Part shown: piece by piece, positions 40,612-47,550 of the stretch
Layout: the number at the start of each line of letters is the position of its first letter
Numbering within the stretch: the first letter of the stretch is position 1
Source of the DNA: Halarcobacter sp.
GTDB taxonomy: Bacteria > Campylobacterota > Campylobacteria > Campylobacterales > Arcobacteraceae
NCBI RefSeq assembly: GCF_963675975.1
Contig: NZ_OY780939.1
Location: forward strand, 992,001 to 1,056,000
Length of the DNA stretch: 64,000 bases
Direction: 5' to 3'
Notes under the pieces: model-generated
Told to the model about the DNA's origin: nothing
Seen by the model: only the letters and a program-made list of their open reading frames with translations
Database searches by the model: none
Made by a program: the position numbers and the translations under genes

Positions 40612-43600
40612 ATGTATATAAAATCTAGAGAATCACTTCTTGAAAACTACTTCGAAACAATTGAAAATATAATCTTGTCTAAACAAAATCCAATAACTGG
40701 ACTTCTCCCTGCAAGTACTGCAAAAACTACCCATGGAGATTATACTGATGCTTGGGTTAGAGATAATGTATATAGTATTCTTTGTGTTTGGGGTTTAAGC
40801 TTATCTTTTAAAAAACACAATCCTGAAGATTATAGAACATATTATTTATCACAAAGTGTTGTAAAGTTGATGAGAGGTTTACTTTTATCAATGATGAGAC
40901 AAAAAGATAAAGTTGAAAAATTTAAATATACTTTAGATCCAACCGATGCCTTACACGCAAAATATGGAACTTCCACAGGTTTACCCGTTGTGGGAGATAA
41001 TGAATGGGGACATCTTCAACTTGATGCAACTTCAATTTTTATTTTAATGCTAACTCAAATGATAGCTTCAGGAATTAAAATTATATTTACGATTGATGAG
41101 GTTAATTTTGTTCAAAATTTAGTACATTATATCAGTAGAACATATTGTACTGCTGATTTTGGTATTTGGGAGAGAGGTCATAAAATTAATACTGGTAATG
41201 CTGAGATAAATTGTAGTTCTGTAGGGATGGCAAAAGCAGCACTTGAAGCAATATCAGGATTTAACCTTTTTGGAAATACAACAAGTAAAGAAGCTGTTAT
41301 TCATGTGATTCCAAGTGATATAGCTAGATCTAGATTTACACTAAAAGAGTTATTACCAAGAGAATCTAGTTCAAAAGAAACTGATGCTGCTTTACTTAGT
41401 ATTATAGGATATCCAGCTTATGCTGTTGAAGATGAAGAGTTAGTTAAAGCAACAAAAGAGAAGATTTTAAAAAAGCTTGAGGGAAATTATGGTTGTAAAA
41501 GATTTCTTTTAGATGGTCATCAAAGTTGTTTAGAAGATAATAGTAGATTACATTACGAAAAATCAGAATTAAGAAAATTTGAAAATATTGAATCTGAGTG
41601 GCCTCTGTTTTTTACATATTTACTTATAGATTCTTTAATGAGAGGAGATTTTGATGAAGTTGAGTATTGGAATAAAAAATTAGAACCTTTATTTGTGGAA
41701 GTAGATGGACAAAAGCTTTTACCAGAATTATATTATGTGTCAAAAGATTTAATCGAAAAGGAAAGAGAAAATCCTAAGAGTCAAAAAAGAGTTCCAAATG
41801 AAAATATTCCCTTAGTTTGGGCACAAAGTTTATACCTTTTATCTAAAATGGTACAAGATAAAATATTAGATATAAATGATATTGACCCTTTAAATAGAAG
41901 AAGCAGAATAGGTCATAAAAGAAAAACTTATCCAATGGTTGCAATTTTATCAGAAAATGAAGTAGTAAAACAAAAACTACTTAATTTAGGATTTAATACA
42001 CAAACTATAGATGAATTAAAACCATTAAAGATAGTCCATGCTTCACAATTAAAATATGTACATAGTATTTTAGGAAAAAATAAAAAATTAGGTTTAACAG
42101 GGAAACCATCTTGGGTGCCACGTTCAATAACAACTGCAAGGTTACATATACTAGCCCAAGAGAATATAGTTTTTTTACCATACTACTTTAATCCAAAAGG
42201 GTTTTATTTTAATTCTGACAATAGATTATTAGTGGAACATTTTAGGGCTTCACTTACTTTCCTTTCAACTCACTGGGATCAACCAGGTCAACCTATAATC
42301 CCTTTTTTAGTAAAAGATAATATGTTAGATAGTATGCAAAAAAATGAGATATTAGATTTATTAAATGAGATACAAAGTGAAGTTTGTAATAAAATCGAGA
42401 TTAAATTAGGATTTCTACAACAATTAATTACAACTGCGGGTATTGAAAGAATAGATAATTTGCATGGCTTAAAAATAGAAGATTTGGATTTTGATTTAGA
42501 TGATAAAAATCTTTATATCTCTTCTTTATTAGAGTGTGAACTTCCTCAAAAATCAAATTCTTTCGTACAAGATTATTTTAAGTTAGAAGATAGTGCACTA
42601 ATAGAAAAATTAACTCAATATATACCATTAAGTCATAAGGTTGATATTTTATATATTTTATATGAAAGACATAGTTCAGATTTTGAAGTATATATTGAAG
42701 AAAAAGCCATCAAATTATCTTTGTTGGCACAACATTATTATCAATATGCAGTTGCTTGTGAAAACTGGTCAATTATTAGAAAAATTAGTGATATCCAAGG
42801 TTCATTTGATGAACGTTTAGAAGATGCATTATTGGAAATAATTATTAGGCAAAAAAGATTAGCAGTTGGTCGAGCTTATAGTGAAGAAGCAACAATATCT
42901 AAATCTTTGGATAATGTTTCTACTTTAAATCTGATAAATAAATTTTGTGGAAAAAATCCTGCTGAAAGAGCTTTAACCCAAGAGATTGTTTTACATTTAG
43001 GACATTTAATTAGAATAAAGCCTGAATTGTTTGAGGGTATACTAACAATGAGAAGTTGGTATTTTGTTCAATTATTAGTTAGTAATATTTGTAAAGAAAA
43101 GAATATCCCAATAGCTGATGGTTATGAATATTTAATTAGTATTCCTCCAAGCCAAATCTATAATAGTTTAATAGAAGTATTAAGTTCACTTAGTTTTAAC
43201 ATAGGCCAAATGAAAAATCAAGAGAGTCTTTTTGTCACAAGTAATAGCTCTTTTAATTTTAAATTTGAGAAAAATGATAAGATAAAAGAGAACAGAGATT
43301 GGGCAGAATATAGAAAAGAAGCGGGAATGCTTTCAAGATTATCAAAAAACTTTTATAAAGGTATTTGGTATTTATTACAACAATGTAGAGGTTTAGTAAT
43401 AGGTGATAAATATAATTTGAATAATAGAATTGATTCTGAGATAACCTATGATACAACTGCTGGAGAAAGAAGTTTTGAATTAAGACTAGAAGGATTGTTA
43501 CAAGGGATTGAAGCTGCAGATTATAGGCAGTTAAATTTGGAAGCTTTAGAATCATTATCTAAAATATTTAAAGAAAATCCAGATATTAAATTAGAAGCAG

Positions 43601-43788
43601 ATGTTATGTTAGATGTCATAATAGGTCATGCCGTCAGACTTGCTTGGATAAAAGATAATAGTCAAGATAATTATGATGAACATAGGGCACAAGCTTGGAA
43701 CTCATTTTATAAACTATCTCCAAATGAGACTGATGAATATTTTATTGAAGCCTTTATGTATCTTTTAACTCAAAATGAGGAGAATTAA
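40612..43788 (+). CDS. GH15-type (alpha/alpha)6 protein homologous to phosphorylase kinase alpha/beta subunits
   Basis: A 1058-residue protein that resembles, over its whole length, the regulatory alpha and beta subunits of animal phosphorylase b kinase. Clear shared segments are NPITGLLPAS and AWVRDNVYSILCVWGL (near 47-62), QSVVKLMRGLLLSMMRQKDK, VGDNEWGHLQLDATS, the glucoamylase-like DFGIWERG with E186, SSVGMAKAALEA, NIESEWPLFFTYLLIDS, and DIDPLNRR. The C-terminal region FYKGIWYLLQQC also fits those subunits. No kinase domain or signal peptide is present. The N-terminal domain is glycoside hydrolase family 15-like, so it may cleave or bind alpha-glucans. It overlaps the glucokinase gene by one base, which supports a role in glucan or glucose use. 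Activity is unproven. Confidence 0.88.
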   Translation: MYIKSRESLLENYFETIENIILSKQNPITGLLPASTAKTTHGDYTDAWVRDNVYSILCVWGLSLSFKKHNPEDYRTYYLSQSVVKLMRGLLLSMMRQKDKVEKFKYTLDPTDALHAKYGTSTGLPVVGDNEWGHLQLDATSIFILMLTQMIASGIKIIFTIDEVNFVQNLVHYISRTYCTADFGIWERGHKINTGNAEINCSSVGMAKAALEAISGFNLFGNTTSKEAVIHVIPSDIARSRFTLKELLPRESSSKETDAALLSIIGYPAYAVEDEELVKATKEKILKKLEGNYGCKRFLLDGHQSCLEDNSRLHYEKSELRKFENIESEWPLFFTYLLIDSLMRGDFDEVEYWNKKLEPLFVEVDGQKLLPELYYVSKDLIEKERENPKSQKRVPNENIPLVWAQSLYLLSKMVQDKILDINDIDPLNRRSRIGHKRKTYPMVAILSENEVVKQKLLNLGFNTQTIDELKPLKIVHASQLKYVHSILGKNKKLGLTGKPSWVPRSITTARLHILAQENIVFLPYYFNPKGFYFNSDNRLLVEHFRASLTFLSTHWDQPGQPIIPFLVKDNMLDSMQKNEILDLLNEIQSEVCNKIEIKLGFLQQLITTAGIERIDNLHGLKIEDLDFDLDDKNLYISSLLECELPQKSNSFVQDYFKLEDSALIEKLTQYIPLSHKVDILYILYERHSSDFEVYIEEKAIKLSLLAQHYYQYAVACENWSIIRKISDIQGSFDERLEDALLEIIIRQKRLAVGRAYSEEATISKSLDNVSTLNLINKFCGKNPAERALTQEIVLHLGHLIRIKPELFEGILTMRSWYFVQLLVSNICKEKNIPIADGYEYLISIPPSQIYNSLIEVLSSLSFNIGQMKNQESLFVTSNSSFNFKFEKNDKIKENRDWAEYRKEAGMLSRLSKNFYKGIWYLLQQCRGLVIGDKYNLNNRIDSEITYDTTAGERSFELRLEGLLQGIEAADYRQLNLEALESLSKIFKENPDIKLEADVMLDVIIGHAVRLAWIKDNSQDNYDEHRAQAWNSFYKLSPNETDEYFIEAFMYLLTQNEEN

Positions 43789-44774
43789 TGATTTTAAGTG
43801 GCGATATAGGTGGAACAAAAACAAAACTTGCTTTATACAAAATTGAAAATAATAGTTTAAATCTATATTATGAAAAACAATTCTCCAGCAAAAAATATAA
43901 TAGTTTCTTAAAGCTTTTAGAAGAGTTTGAAAAAGATGCCCCTAAATGTCAAATAGATGCAATTACTATTGGTATAGCTGGACCTATTATAGAACAAAGA
44001 TGTAGAACTACAAATCTTCCTTGGGATATTAGTGCCCAAGAGTTAAAAAAATATTTTAATACACAAAAAGTAAAATTGTTAAATGATTTAGAAGCAACAG
44101 CATACGGAATGTTATATCTAAAAGATGAAGAGTTTTATGATTTAAATCCAAGTGCAAGAGTTATAAAAGGAAATATTGCAGTAATAGCAGCTGGAACTGG
44201 ACTTGGTGAAGCAATACTTTATTTTGATGGTGATTCTTTTTCTCCAATAGGAACAGAAGGTGGACATAGTGATTTTGCACCAATAACTTCCCAACAAGAT
44301 GAACTTTTAACTTGGCTAAGAAAAAGGTACCCAGGTCATGTAAGTTATGAGCGTGTTGCTTCGGGTATGGGAATCTCTACTATTTATGAGTTTTTATATG
44401 AAAGTGGATTTGCAAAACAGCCAGAATTTATAGCTAATATGGATGAAAATGCAGATAAAAGTGCTTTAATTAGTAAAGGGGCTTTGGAATTAAATGATCC
44501 TTTATGTATGGAGACTTTAAAGCTTTTTGTAGAAATTTATGCAGCTGAAGCTGGTAACCTTGCATTAAAATCTATGTCATTGGGTGGAGTATATATTGGT
44601 GGAGGAATAGCACCTAAAATTTTACCAATTATAAAAAGTGATTACTTTTTAAATGCTTTTTTTAGTAAAGGAAGATTTGAAGAGTTATTAAGAAGAATTC
44701 CTTTAAGAGTCTCTTTAAATCCAAATACTGCATTGTTTGGTGCAACAAGATATGCATTTGATAAATTAGTTTAG
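43788..44774 (+). CDS. glk: Glucokinase
   Basis: A 328-residue ATP-dependent hexokinase of the bacterial Glk family. LSGDIGGTKTKLALY at the N-terminus is the phosphate-binding loop. TNLPWDISAQEL, LLNDLEATAYGM (catalytic aspartate), AAGTGLGEAIL, GTEGGHSDFAP (glucose contact) and GGVYIGGGIAPKIL follow. It phosphorylates glucose to glucose 6-phosphate. It shares its first base with the stop of the phosphorylase-kinase-like gene, so the two are translationally coupled. Confidence 0.93.
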   Translation: MILSGDIGGTKTKLALYKIENNSLNLYYEKQFSSKKYNSFLKLLEEFEKDAPKCQIDAITIGIAGPIIEQRCRTTNLPWDISAQELKKYFNTQKVKLLNDLEATAYGMLYLKDEEFYDLNPSARVIKGNIAVIAAGTGLGEAILYFDGDSFSPIGTEGGHSDFAPITSQQDELLTWLRKRYPGHVSYERVASGMGISTIYEFLYESGFAKQPEFIANMDENADKSALISKGALELNDPLCMETLKLFVEIYAAEAGNLALKSMSLGGVYIGGGIAPKILPIIKSDYFLNAFFSKGRFEELLRRIPLRVSLNPNTALFGATRYAFDKLV

Positions 44775-44784
44775 GCACTTATTT

Positions 44785-47550
44785 TTGAATCAACTAATTA
44801 CAAACACTTCAAGTGGTAACTTTTATAATCATATCACTTCACTTTTAGAGTCTTGTAACTCTTTTACTTTTAATGTAGCTTTTCTAAATTATTCTGGGAT
44901 TCAATTACTTTTAAATAGTTTAGAAAAGTGTAAAGAAAGAGGAGTTAAAGGGAAAATATTAACATCTACATATCTAAATTTTACAGAACCAAAAGCTTTA
45001 GGAAAACTTTTAGAATTTGATAATATTGAGCTAAAAATATTTGATTCAAGTTCTCAAGGCTTTCATTCAAAGGCTTATATATTTGAATTTGACGATGAAT
45101 ACAAAACTATAATTGGTTCTTCAAATATAACAGCAAGTGCATTTAAAACAAATATAGAGTGGAACAATCAAACAATAAATAAGAAAGAAGACATATATTT
45201 AGAAACTTTATTTAGTGAATTTAACTCTTTATGGGAAGGCTCTATTACTGTTGATAAAAACTTTATTGATTCATATTCTATTTATAAAAAAGATTTAGTA
45301 AAGAAAAGTTTTGTTTTTAATAAAGAGATAAAAGTTAATTTGATGCAAAAACAAGCTTTAGAAAAGTTGGAATTTTTTAGAAAAAATAAAGAAAATAAAG
45401 CTTTAGTTATAGCAGCAACAGGTACTGGAAAAACATATCTAGTCGCATTTGATGTAAAAGAAGTAAAACCTAAAAGGTTACTTTTTATTGTTCATAGGGA
45501 AAATATTTTAAATAAAGCAAAAGAGTGTTTTGAAACTTTAATAAGTGATGTACAAATGGGTTTACTTACAGGAAATAGTAAAGATATTTCAAAACAGTAT
45601 ATTTTTGCAACCATACAAACATTAAGTTCAAATTTTAATATTTTTAAAAAAGATGAATTTGATTATATTATTTATGATGAAGCTCACCATATAGCAAGCC
45701 CATCTTATATAAAAGTAAAAAACTATTTTGATGCAAAATTTACTTTAGGATTAACAGCAACACCCAATAGAATGGATGGAATATCTATTTATGAGCAATT
45801 TGATGATAATGTAGCTTGTGATATTAGACTTGATGAGGCTTTAGAAAATAAACTTGTTTCAACTTTTCATTATTATGGGATTAGTGATATACAAGAGTTA
45901 GATTATGAAGATATTGATATAAATGATATTAGTTCTTTATCAAAATTTTTGATGATAAATAGAAGAGTAGATTTTATTATTGAAAAAATGAATTTTTATG
46001 GATATTCAGGAAATAAAAGAAGAGTATTAGGCTTTTGTAGTTCAAAAGAACATGCTTTATATATGGCAGAAGAGTTTAACAAAAAAGGGATATCTTCTAT
46101 TGCTTTAACAAGTGATGATAGTACCCAAAAAAGAGATGAGCTTATTGATTCTTTGGAAGATGAAAATCAAAAACTTGAAGTTATATTTAGTGTGGATATT
46201 TTTAATGAAGGGATTGATATACCTTCAATAAATACTGTTTTGATGTTAAGACCTACAAATTCACCTATTGTTTTTGTCCAACAATTAGGAAGAGGAGTTA
46301 GAAAATCTAAAGATAAAGAGTTTTTAACCTTAATAGATTTTATAGGTAACCATAAAAAAAGTTTTTTAATTGCTTTAGCTTTAAGTGGTAAGAAATTTAT
46401 AGATAAAGAGAGTATAAAATTCTCTTTATTAAACAATTTTGCAAATTTAAAAAATGCTCATATAGTGTTAGATGAAATTTCAAAAAATAGAATATTAGAA
46501 CAAATAAACAAAGAGAATTTAAACAGTTTTAAATATTTAAAAGATAACTACTTAGAGTTTAAAGCAATACTTGGGAATAAAATTCCAAATATGGAAGATT
46601 TTATCAATAATGATGATTTTATAACTCCCATACCTTTTATTGGTGAATCTAAATCTTATATATCTTTTTTAAATAGAGTAGAAAAAGATAAAGTTATCCA
46701 AACAATTTGTTTAGATGAAAAATTTTTAAAAGCTGTTGCTTTTATTGATTATCATTTACCTCTAAGAAGAGTTTATGAATTTGCCATATTAAAATATTTA
46801 CTAAAAAATAAAAAAATCGATTTAAAAAAAGCAAAAGAGCTTTTAAAGAAGTATTTATTAAGTGTAAATGAAAATACTATAAAACATAGTTTTTCTTATC
46901 TAAACCATGAGTATTTTGATTCTTCTCAAGAAAAAAGATTTTTAAAACTTATTGAGAAAAAAGATTCTGAAATCTATTTAACAAAAGAGTTTGAAAATAT
47001 TCTAAAAGACCCATATAAAAAAGCCTTTATTGAAAGTTCTATAAATTATGGAATTATAACTTATGAAGAGAGTTTTTCAAATATAGATTATGGCTTGCCA
47101 TTTTTTAAATTATATGAAAAGTATAATATGTTGGAGATTGCCTTATTGGCAAACTTCAATAAAATACATAGTTCTTTTAGGGGTAGTGGATTTTTAAAGT
47201 TTAATGATGATTTCTTTTTATTTATTACCTTAGAAAAAGATAAATATTCAAAAGCTTCAAAATATGTAAATAATTTTAAATCAAATGATACTTTTAATTT
47301 TATTAGTAAACCTTCTATGTCCCAAGAAAAAGGGGATGGATATAGATTGATAAATAATAAAAAAGAGAAAGTAAACTTACATATATTTGTTAGAAAATTT
47401 TCCCATGTGGATAAAAAAGTTCAAAAATTTATTTATTTAGGTTTAGCTGATTGTGTTTCGTATAGTGGAAATAAACCAATAAATACACAACTTGTATTAC
47501 AAAAACCATTAAGTGATAAGTTGTATTATGAGTTTACTAAAATAGTTTAA
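44785..47550 (+). CDS. PLD-helicase-DUF3427 protein
   Basis: A 921-residue soluble protein from a TTG start. Residues 1-165 are a phospholipase D-like domain with H94 and K96 in FHSKAYIFEF and GSSNIT at 111-116 (one HKD-type motif). Residues 180-560 are a superfamily 2 helicase: Walker A ATGTGKT (211-217), DEAHH (298-302), LTATPNRMDG, FSVDIFNEGIDIP and QQLGRGVRKSKDK. The C-terminal 350 residues resemble DUF3427. Proteins of this layout are often thought to act on foreign nucleic acid or in repair, but the role is not settled. It begins 10 bases after glk and overlaps the convergent kinase gene by four bases. Confidence 0.85.
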   Translation: MNQLITNTSSGNFYNHITSLLESCNSFTFNVAFLNYSGIQLLLNSLEKCKERGVKGKILTSTYLNFTEPKALGKLLEFDNIELKIFDSSSQGFHSKAYIFEFDDEYKTIIGSSNITASAFKTNIEWNNQTINKKEDIYLETLFSEFNSLWEGSITVDKNFIDSYSIYKKDLVKKSFVFNKEIKVNLMQKQALEKLEFFRKNKENKALVIAATGTGKTYLVAFDVKEVKPKRLLFIVHRENILNKAKECFETLISDVQMGLLTGNSKDISKQYIFATIQTLSSNFNIFKKDEFDYIIYDEAHHIASPSYIKVKNYFDAKFTLGLTATPNRMDGISIYEQFDDNVACDIRLDEALENKLVSTFHYYGISDIQELDYEDIDINDISSLSKFLMINRRVDFIIEKMNFYGYSGNKRRVLGFCSSKEHALYMAEEFNKKGISSIALTSDDSTQKRDELIDSLEDENQKLEVIFSVDIFNEGIDIPSINTVLMLRPTNSPIVFVQQLGRGVRKSKDKEFLTLIDFIGNHKKSFLIALALSGKKFIDKESIKFSLLNNFANLKNAHIVLDEISKNRILEQINKENLNSFKYLKDNYLEFKAILGNKIPNMEDFINNDDFITPIPFIGESKSYISFLNRVEKDKVIQTICLDEKFLKAVAFIDYHLPLRRVYEFAILKYLLKNKKIDLKKAKELLKKYLLSVNENTIKHSFSYLNHEYFDSSQEKRFLKLIEKKDSEIYLTKEFENILKDPYKKAFIESSINYGIITYEESFSNIDYGLPFFKLYEKYNMLEIALLANFNKIHSSFRGSGFLKFNDDFFLFITLEKDKYSKASKYVNNFKSNDTFNFISKPSMSQEKGDGYRLINNKKEKVNLHIFVRKFSHVDKKVQKFIYLGLADCVSYSGNKPINTQLVLQKPLSDKLYYEFTKIV

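What the first reader, a model, noticed from the sequence alone, without database searches (positions are those of the whole stretch)
40612..44774. Full-length bacterial homologue of eukaryotic phosphorylase kinase alpha/beta coupled to glucokinase
The 1058-residue protein shows many segments that I recognise from animal phosphorylase kinase alpha (AWVRDNVYSI, VGDNEWGHLQLDATS, DFGIWERG, SSVGMAKAALEA, DIDPLNRR), and the similarity appears to reach the C-terminal domain. No kinase catalytic subunit is nearby. The one-base overlap with glk suggests a glucan or glucose function. Arcobacteraceae are generally considered poor sugar users, so this pair is unexpected. It may show the ancestral activity of a subunit known only as regulatory in animals.
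Basis: partly seen in the sequence, partly recalled or inferred. Interest (0 to 1): 0.62.

Follow-up and report, generated by a model that had tools for sequence, protein, structure and literature searches.

The report
Kinase-less bacterial phosphorylase-kinase homologue beside glucokinase
A bacterium carries a full-length relative of the two big regulatory subunits of the animal enzyme that switches on glycogen breakdown, but without the kinase; its intact sugar-cutting site and its gene partners suggest that it frees glucose from stored glycogen, which may be what these subunits did before animals made them regulators.

Summary
ORF 40612-43788 (1058 aa) is homologous over its whole length to human phosphorylase kinase alpha and beta, C-terminal domain included, and its predicted structure superposes on both. 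Both GH15 catalytic glutamates are kept (E187, E372), as in every bacterial relative aligned: 36 of 36 and 37 of 37, then 7 of 7 further ones. Human beta has lost the second. No Ser/Thr kinase passes the Pfam cut-off in the host genome. glk overlaps by one base and follows the gene in all 8 carriers of the genus.

The pair is not unexpected here: the genome has a glycogen cluster and an Entner-Doudoroff operon. Of 16 genus genomes, exactly the 8 with both have the gene. Elsewhere glk, glycogen or Entner-Doudoroff genes flank it in 9 of 29 loci and 4 of 7 more.

Best reading: a cytosolic GH15-type glucosidase that finishes glycogen breakdown and hands glucose to glucokinase and the Entner-Doudoroff pathway. 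Activity is inferred: human alpha keeps both glutamates yet was inactive in vitro. The family is rare but already in Pfam; the function is open and testable.

The parts
40612..43788 (+). php: full-length homologue of phosphorylase kinase alpha/beta, 1058 aa, no kinase partner
40639..41901 (+). D1, GH15 (glucoamylase-like) domain, about residues 10-430; 54% identical to human PHKA
41137..41148 (+). residues 176-179 (R-x-Y-C), three positions of the human PHKB ADP pocket (R211, Y213, R214)
41170..41172 (+). codon of E187 (= human PHKA E185, one of its two catalytic Glu by the literature); E in 36 of 36 bacterial relatives with a letter there, and in 7 of 7 further ones
41326..41328 (+). codon of R239, fourth position of the PHKB ADP pocket (R274)
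41725..41727 (+). codon of E372 (= human PHKA E371; K in PHKB); E in 37 of 37 bacterial relatives and in 7 of 7 further ones
43096..43782 (+). KPBB_C domain (PF19292), residues 829-1057
43777..43782 (+). GAGGAG, ribosome-binding-like site for glk inside the end of php
   Evidence: read from the sequence
43788..44774 (+). glk, glucokinase, start overlapping the php stop by one base

Best explanation
php is a soluble, cytosolic GH15-type exo-alpha-glucosidase with the five-domain build of phosphorylase kinase alpha/beta. It releases free glucose from the short or branched glucans left when alpha-glucan phosphorylase degrades the cell's own glycogen. The glucokinase encoded right behind it turns that glucose into glucose-6-phosphate, which enters the Entner-Doudoroff (ED) route (zwf-pgl-edd-eda). 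Shown: full-length homology, kept catalytic pair, tight pairing with glk, presence of glycogen and ED genes, co-occurrence, no kinase over the cut-off. Inferred: that the site is active, the substrate, the direction of flux, co-transcription, and the cytosolic place (no signal peptide by eye; no program was run).
For: Catalytic glutamates E187/E372 are invariant in bacteria: 36/36 and 37/37, and 7/7 in genes fetched afterwards. Human PHKA keeps 130 of 148 of the D1 columns that are at least 95% conserved in bacteria, PHKB 100 of 149, with W48, R50, D129, W132 and E372 among PHKB's losses. The model's first domain matches GH15 enzymes: 5z3e Z 25.7, bacterial glucoamylase 1lf6 Z 22.5, glucodextranase 1ug9 Z 20.8. 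glk is directly downstream in 8 of 8 genus carriers, in the 4 other Campylobacterota loci and in G206 of the same phylum. Alpha-glucan phosphorylase is directly upstream in L013 and upstream of zwf-pgl-edd-eda-php-glk in L011; malQ, glgA, glgB or glgX are neighbours in other lineages. GH77 amylomaltase, another source of free glucose (recalled), is absent from 15 of 16. Of 29 php genomes elsewhere, 23 have GlgA over the cut-off and 26 a KDPG aldolase match. Precedent (passages of PMC11046441): archaea without GH77 likely finish maltodextrins with GH15 glucoamylase plus phosphorylase, and the Sulfolobus GH15 mutant's glycogen phenotype fitted a catabolic role.
Against: Human alpha keeps both glutamates but showed no activity on maltose, isomaltose or glycogen (PMC10978961). 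20 of 29 loci have no glk, ED or glycogen gene found within the flanks held, and 3 of 7 further ones have none. G005 and G014 have glycogen genes and glk but no php. Some php genomes show no KDPG aldolase match (G269, G271, G280), and G280 only a 31-bit GlgA match; several of these are metagenome bins. Parts of the active-site loops are low-confidence in the model (187-194, 297-316, 319-327 under pLDDT 50).
Confidence: 0.6

Rival explanations
1. php is a glucan- and nucleotide-sensing regulator or scaffold with no useful catalysis: it binds glycogen ends in its GH15 pocket and controls glucokinase, phosphorylase or an ED enzyme by contact, foreshadowing its role in animals.
For: Human alpha and beta are regulatory and no hydrolase activity was detected. 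D2-D5 are kept in full. Positions of the beta ADP pocket are partly kept (R176, Y178, R239). In the genus php follows the ED pathway as well as glycogen, whereas glk persists without php.
Against: Both active-site glutamates are kept in every bacterial sequence examined, whereas beta lost one along with W48, R50, D129 and W132. No fixed regulated partner: neighbours differ among lineages.
Confidence: 0.2
2. php is an active GH15 enzyme but on another alpha-glucoside (trehalose, kojibiose, nigerose, glucosylglycerate or an alpha-1,6 stub), not on glycogen-derived maltodextrin.
For: The NCBIfam trehalase TreH1 model matches residues 127-298 at E 1.4e-7, far below its cut-off (30.5 against 820 bits); glucodextranase and dextran dextrinase, alpha-1,6 enzymes, are among the structural matches. 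Human alpha is inactive on maltose, isomaltose and glycogen. The host ED operon carries a GpgS-like and a sucrose-phosphorylase-like gene.
Against: Genomic partners are glycogen genes in several lineages. G006 has an ED operon of like layout, GpgS-like and phosphorylase-like ORFs included (by eye), but no php.
Confidence: 0.15
3. php is the regulatory subunit of a bacterial protein kinase complex like PhK.
For: Full-length homology to alpha and beta. In the genus 6 of 8 php genomes have a PF00069 match over the cut-off against 2 of 8 without php, and in G007 and G002 such a gene lies about 10 and 17 kb from php on the same contig. I had first written that kinases do not follow php; mending this raised these odds from 0.03 to 0.04.
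Against: The window's genome and G008 have php but no PF00069 match over the cut-off. The kinases near php in G007 and G002 are fused to a PP2C phosphatase, and in G007 the gene is beside cyanate lyase; G006 has a frame of the same size and match without php. No C-terminal CaaX.
Confidence: 0.04

Closest known systems
Human phosphorylase kinase alpha and beta subunits (PHKA/PHKB; PDB 8jfk, 8jfl, 8z5m)
   Same: Whole length and fold: E 2.7e-198 and 3.2e-159, 785 residues at 3.6 A with alpha; both catalytic Glu of alpha; part of the ADP-pocket residues of beta.
   Different: No kinase over the cut-off in the genome, no CaaX end, one gene instead of two, paired with glk; keeps nine D1 positions conserved in bacteria that both human subunits changed (Y44, G266, H303, Q304, S328, N396, N398, L401, V402).
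GH15 glucoamylases (PF00723)
   Same: PF00723 E 5.1e-78, fold match, both catalytic carboxylates.
   Different: About 600 further C-terminal residues (D2-D5) homologous to PhK; sequence searches of the PDB with E up to 10 found no GH15 enzyme other than PhK.
Cytosolic GH15 glucoamylase of archaeal glycogen breakdown
   Same: Proposed role: finishing glycogen or maltodextrin where GH77 is absent (PMC11046441 passages).
   Different: PhK architecture and pairing with glucokinase.

Membership tests
Phosphorylase kinase alpha/beta family | GH15-like D1 followed by D2-D4 and KPBB_C (PF19292) over the whole length | tested here: met
Phosphorylase kinase alpha/beta family | Belongs to a kinase holoenzyme (gamma catalytic subunit, calmodulin) | tested here: not met
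   no PF00069 match over the cut-off in the genome; calmodulin was not searched. So it is a homologue, not a PhK subunit
Phosphorylase kinase alpha/beta family | C-terminal CaaX farnesylation motif (human alpha and beta, PMC10978961) | tested here: not met
   C terminus ...YLLTQNEEN
Phosphorylase kinase alpha/beta family | ADP pocket of beta (R211, Y213, R214, R274) | tested here: inconclusive
   window R, Y, C, R; exact RYRR in L015, L018, L021, L031, L034 and L111, L112; other residues elsewhere; three of four positions less conserved than the D1 median
GH15 | (alpha/alpha)6 GH15 domain | tested here: met
   PF00723 E 5.1e-78; 5z3e Z 25.7, 332 residues, 4.0 A
GH15 | Both catalytic glutamates | tested here: met
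   E187 and E372 aligned with PHKA E185 and E371; roles of the latter from PMC10978961
GH15 | Inverting alpha-glucosidase activity | not testable with these tools
   needs an assay
Glucokinase (glk) | Over the TIGR00749 cut-off | tested here: met
   253.4 against 225.45 bits

The most novel reading that the evidence does not exclude
The bacterial protein is an ADP/AMP-gated glucoamylase that joins in one chain the intact catalytic site now seen in human alpha and the nucleotide site now seen in human beta. The eukaryotic duplication split the two functions and bolted them to a kinase. Human alpha may be catalytically silent, despite its two glutamates, because it changed further positions conserved in bacteria (H303, Q304, S328, N396, N398, L401).
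Probability: 0.22. Interest if true: 0.8.

Novelty: new variant of a known kind. Interest (0 to 1): 0.52.

Why it matters
Phosphorylase kinase was the first protein kinase described (recalled), yet what its glucoamylase-like domains do, and above all what the intact-looking active site of alpha is for, 'still requires further investigation' (PMC10978961). A kinase-free, single-gene homologue that occurs with glycogen phosphorylase, glycogen synthase, glucokinase and the Entner-Doudoroff pathway gives a simple way to test the pre-kinase function, and suggests that the tie to glycogen breakdown is older than the tie to a kinase.

Tried and rejected
Sequence search of the PDB for an ordinary GH15 enzyme with the first domain or with the profile: only PhK and, two chance hits; GH15 membership therefore rests on Pfam and on fold. 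PHROGs: nothing at 1e-3. Plasmid collection: two weak matches (24-25%, residues 36-420) in E. coli records, no annotated feature under them, not followed. Idea that php is recently foreign: GC 0.285 against 0.274 for the window and like GC3, no sign. php remnant at the php-less glk site of G005 and G014: none (hits only at E 0.66 or worse). Idea that glk needs php: rejected, since G005 and G014 keep glk without php. Strict rule 'php only with ED': holds in the genus but not everywhere (26 of 29). Phylogeny for transfer direction: alpha and beta group together (99 SH-aLRT, but both are long branches); each alone falls near L021/L023 with weak support (for which I dropped 8 near-copies or shortened rows: L014, L022, L025, L027, L034, L036, L038, L096). 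Left open. ADP-pocket conservation as proof of nucleotide control: rejected as proof, because three of four positions are less conserved than the D1 median. Literature: ten searches of the open PMC library; in their listings I saw no paper on full-length bacterial PhK alpha/beta homologues (the largest lists, 506 and 119 papers, show only the top 15). One abstract names a 'glycogen phosphorylase kinase' in the Synechococcus WH8102 proteome (PMC6716455, one passage). Pallen 2003 was not held and Carriere 2008 was not sought; neither was read.
Full report
The observation. The ORF at 40612-43788 is 1058 aa and glk is 43788-44774, overlapping by one base as TAATG with GAGGAG just upstream. Pfam gives GH15 over residues 10-814 and the phosphorylase b kinase C-terminal domain over 829-1057, E 5.1e-78 and 7.8e-75. 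Against PDB sequences the best matches are human PHKA (2.7e-198) and PHKB (3.2e-159), in pieces from residue 10 to 983 (alpha) and 1056 (beta). The homology is not limited to the GH15 domain. A 37-sequence alignment gave an AlphaFold2 model with mean pLDDT 82.5 and pTM 0.82. Its best structural matches are PhK alpha (8jfk_A, E 2.3e-60; Z 42.9, 785 residues, 3.6 A) and PhK beta (8jfl_B, E 1.8e-58; 8z5t_B, Z 37.9). GH15 enzymes follow for the first domain: 5z3e Z 25.7, 1lf6 Z 22.5, 1ug9 Z 20.8.

Catalytic residues. PMC10978961 (abstract, passages and two sections read) names E185 and E371 as the catalytic pair of human alpha, and reports no detectable activity of the alpha-gamma-delta complex or the holoenzyme on maltose, isomaltose or glycogen. 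In an alignment of 37 bacterial proteins (window included) with human alpha and beta pieces, window E187 and E372 match these. E is present in 36 of 36 and 37 of 37 bacteria (one partial sequence has no letter at the first site), and beta has K at the second. Of 150 D1 columns conserved at 95% or more in bacteria, alpha keeps 130 of 148 with a letter and beta 100 of 149. Nine were changed in both human subunits: Y44, G266, H303, Q304, S328, N396, N398, L401, V402. That the latter explain the silence of human alpha is my inference.

Held-out check. The loci had not been in that alignment. I fetched eight of these genes whole afterwards. One, L107, appears to be the contig of L013 again (same length, same neighbours); the other seven are new. 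All seven have E at both sites and W48, R50, D51, D129 and W132; all nine positions named above are kept, but for L in place of V402 in one.

Nucleotide pocket. The ADP phosphates are held in human beta by R211, Y213, R214 and R274. The window has R, Y, C, R and alpha A, Y, K, H. Exactly RYRR occurs in L015, L018, L021, L031 and L034 (L015 and L034 are one genus), and in L111 and L112. Elsewhere residues differ: Q at the fourth site in the Alteromonadaceae, S or F at the first in Colwellia- and Cellvibrio-like sequences. Three of the four positions are less conserved than the D1 median, so this is a lead only.

Kinases. A Hanks-type kinase search (PF00069) found a match over the cut-off in 8 of 16 genus genomes, and none in the window's genome. 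Against my reading, 6 of these 8 are php genomes, and in G007 and G002 a kinase lies about 10 and 17 kb from php. Those two are kinase-PP2C fusions, and the one in G007 is next to cyanate lyase, which does not suggest a glycogen role. php without any such kinase in G000 and G008 argues that none is needed. The C terminus has no CaaX.

The host has glycogen and Entner-Doudoroff genes. In the window's own genome, at G000:C1:345000-364900 (L067), lie FBPase, a GH57 branching enzyme, a DUF4912 protein, phosphoglucomutase, alpha-glucan phosphorylase (TIGR02094, 6.2e-140), GlgA, a GalT-like protein, a second GH57 protein and a nucleotidyltransferase/PGM fusion. At G000:C1:3192000-3211000 (L068) the KDPG aldolase (PF01081) lies with Pgi (NF003016 over its cut-off) and with zwf-, pgl- and edd-like ORFs, the latter three named by likeness to L011, where Pfam confirmed them.

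Co-occurrence in the genus (16 genomes). php: 8. Phosphorylase TIGR02094: 10; GlgA over the cut-off: the same 10. KDPG aldolase: 9. Glucokinase: the same 10. php is present in exactly the 8 that have glycogen genes and KDPG aldolase. G005 and G014 have glycogen genes and glk but no aldolase and no php; G006 has the aldolase but no glycogen genes and no php; the other five have none of these. Fisher p is 0.00016 without correction for ancestry. In G005 and G014 the same site reads glk-helicase, without php or a remnant. GH77 amylomaltase is in 1 of 16. In G007 and G012 php is on the same contig as the glycogen cluster, about 13 and 17 kb from the phosphorylase gene.

Other bacteria. The one scan of genome contigs used one protein and gave 29 loci: Campylobacterota, Gammaproteobacteria, Burkholderiales and Ferrovum, one cyanobacterium, one Abditibacteriaceae bacterium. 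The family is rare: PF19292 in 3 of 249 genomes of the window's phylum, G000 included, and in 8 of 398 of the Saccharospirillum phylum, centre included; 1 of 14 controls, Synechococcus elongatus. Neighbours: L011 phosphorylase-zwf-pgl-edd-eda-php-glk; L012 zwf-pgl-edd-eda-php-glk-NTP transferase-GH57; L013 phosphorylase-php-glk; L014 php-glk next to glgB, glgA and galT-like; L015 and L034 zwf-pgl-edd-glk-eda-php-malQ; L018 php-glk; L031 glk-like, GH13-like, php, glgB, glgX; L039 glgB, glgA-php (some named by likeness only). That is 9 of 29 loci. The other 20, mostly Alteromonadales and relatives, show none of the 19 proteins searched for within at most 6 kb, except one weak 88-residue GH13-like match in L030. 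Of the seven new loci, four have such neighbours: L106 php-glk, L109 glgB-glgX-malQ-php, L111 and L112 php-glgB-glgX; L108, L110 and L113 have none. Among the nine carriers met in the even draws (G000 and the centre left out) the count is 5 of 9: G206, G254, G434, G450 and G577 with, G277, G478, G639 and G659 without. Genome-wide, 23 of the 29 have GlgA over the cut-off. Of the other six, four have a full-length match under it (262-286 bits), one a match split in two, and G280 only 31 bits. 26 of 29 have a PF01081 match; G269, G271 and G280 do not.

Tree. Campylobacterota sequences form one group (100 SH-aLRT) and the two human subunits another (99), with long human branches. With either human sequence left out, the other falls near Abditibacteriota and Cyanobacteriota with weak support. 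The bacterial proteins are therefore not alpha or beta in particular, but outside the pair. The direction of any transfer is open.

Reading. Phosphorylase alone stops at short or branched chains (recalled); a GH15 enzyme plus glucokinase would finish the job, and the Chemical Reviews passages (PMC11046441) describe such a division of labour between phosphorylase and GH15 in archaea without GH77. The gene pairing, the intact site and the co-occurrence fit this. The weak points are the inactivity of human alpha in the published assay, the many loci without such neighbours, and the shared ancestry behind the genus counts.

Novelty. Full-length bacterial members are covered by existing Pfam models, so the family is not new. 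In ten searches of the open PMC library I saw no paper on their function (listings only, the longest cut at 15 rows); most subscription papers are not in that library. What is added here is the catalytic and pocket comparison, the kinase-less genome, and the glycogen/ED/glucokinase context.

Noticed in passing
window 44785-47550 (+): 921-aa protein (PLDc_2, helicase, DUF3427) that matches a PADLOC type IV methyl-directed restriction enzyme model at 1.4e-160; a like-sized ORF follows glk in all 10 glk-bearing genus genomes (by eye).
   Followed up: partly
   Followed up: partly
L068:14750-18866 (own genome C1:3192000-3211000): Beside the ED genes: glycerate 2-kinase-like, GpgS-like glucosyl-3-phosphoglycerate synthase and sucrose-phosphorylase-like GH13 genes, all below their curated cut-offs: perhaps glucosylglycerate making and breaking.
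   Followed up: no
L067:1553-6799, L070:10-5219, L071:7843-13099: A [NiFe] hydrogenase operon (large subunit PF00374 in L067; the rest by eye) lies beside the glycogen cluster, and in G007 and G012 between it and php-glk.
   Followed up: no
L087:1348-3072 and L088:1339-3072 (G002, G007): PP2C-kinase fusion proteins, the one in L088 beside a cyanate lyase gene; a kinase frame of like size is in G006.
   Followed up: partly
L096:8416-11367 (G008): php of 983 aa whose match to the window protein skips about residues 629-708, a natural shortened form.
   Followed up: no
L023:9438-12923 (+): 1161-aa ORF directly after php in an Abditibacteriaceae bacterium, with no match in NCBIfam or Pfam at 1e-5.
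   Followed up: no
L101-L105, whole genes in L109-L113 (Pseudomonadota): Five PF19292 matches are far weaker (85-106 bits) than the other three (271-297), so the C-terminal domain has a divergent branch, though both catalytic glutamates are kept there. The TAA flagged in L105 seems to be the gene's own stop, as its ORF is 1028 aa.
   Followed up: partly
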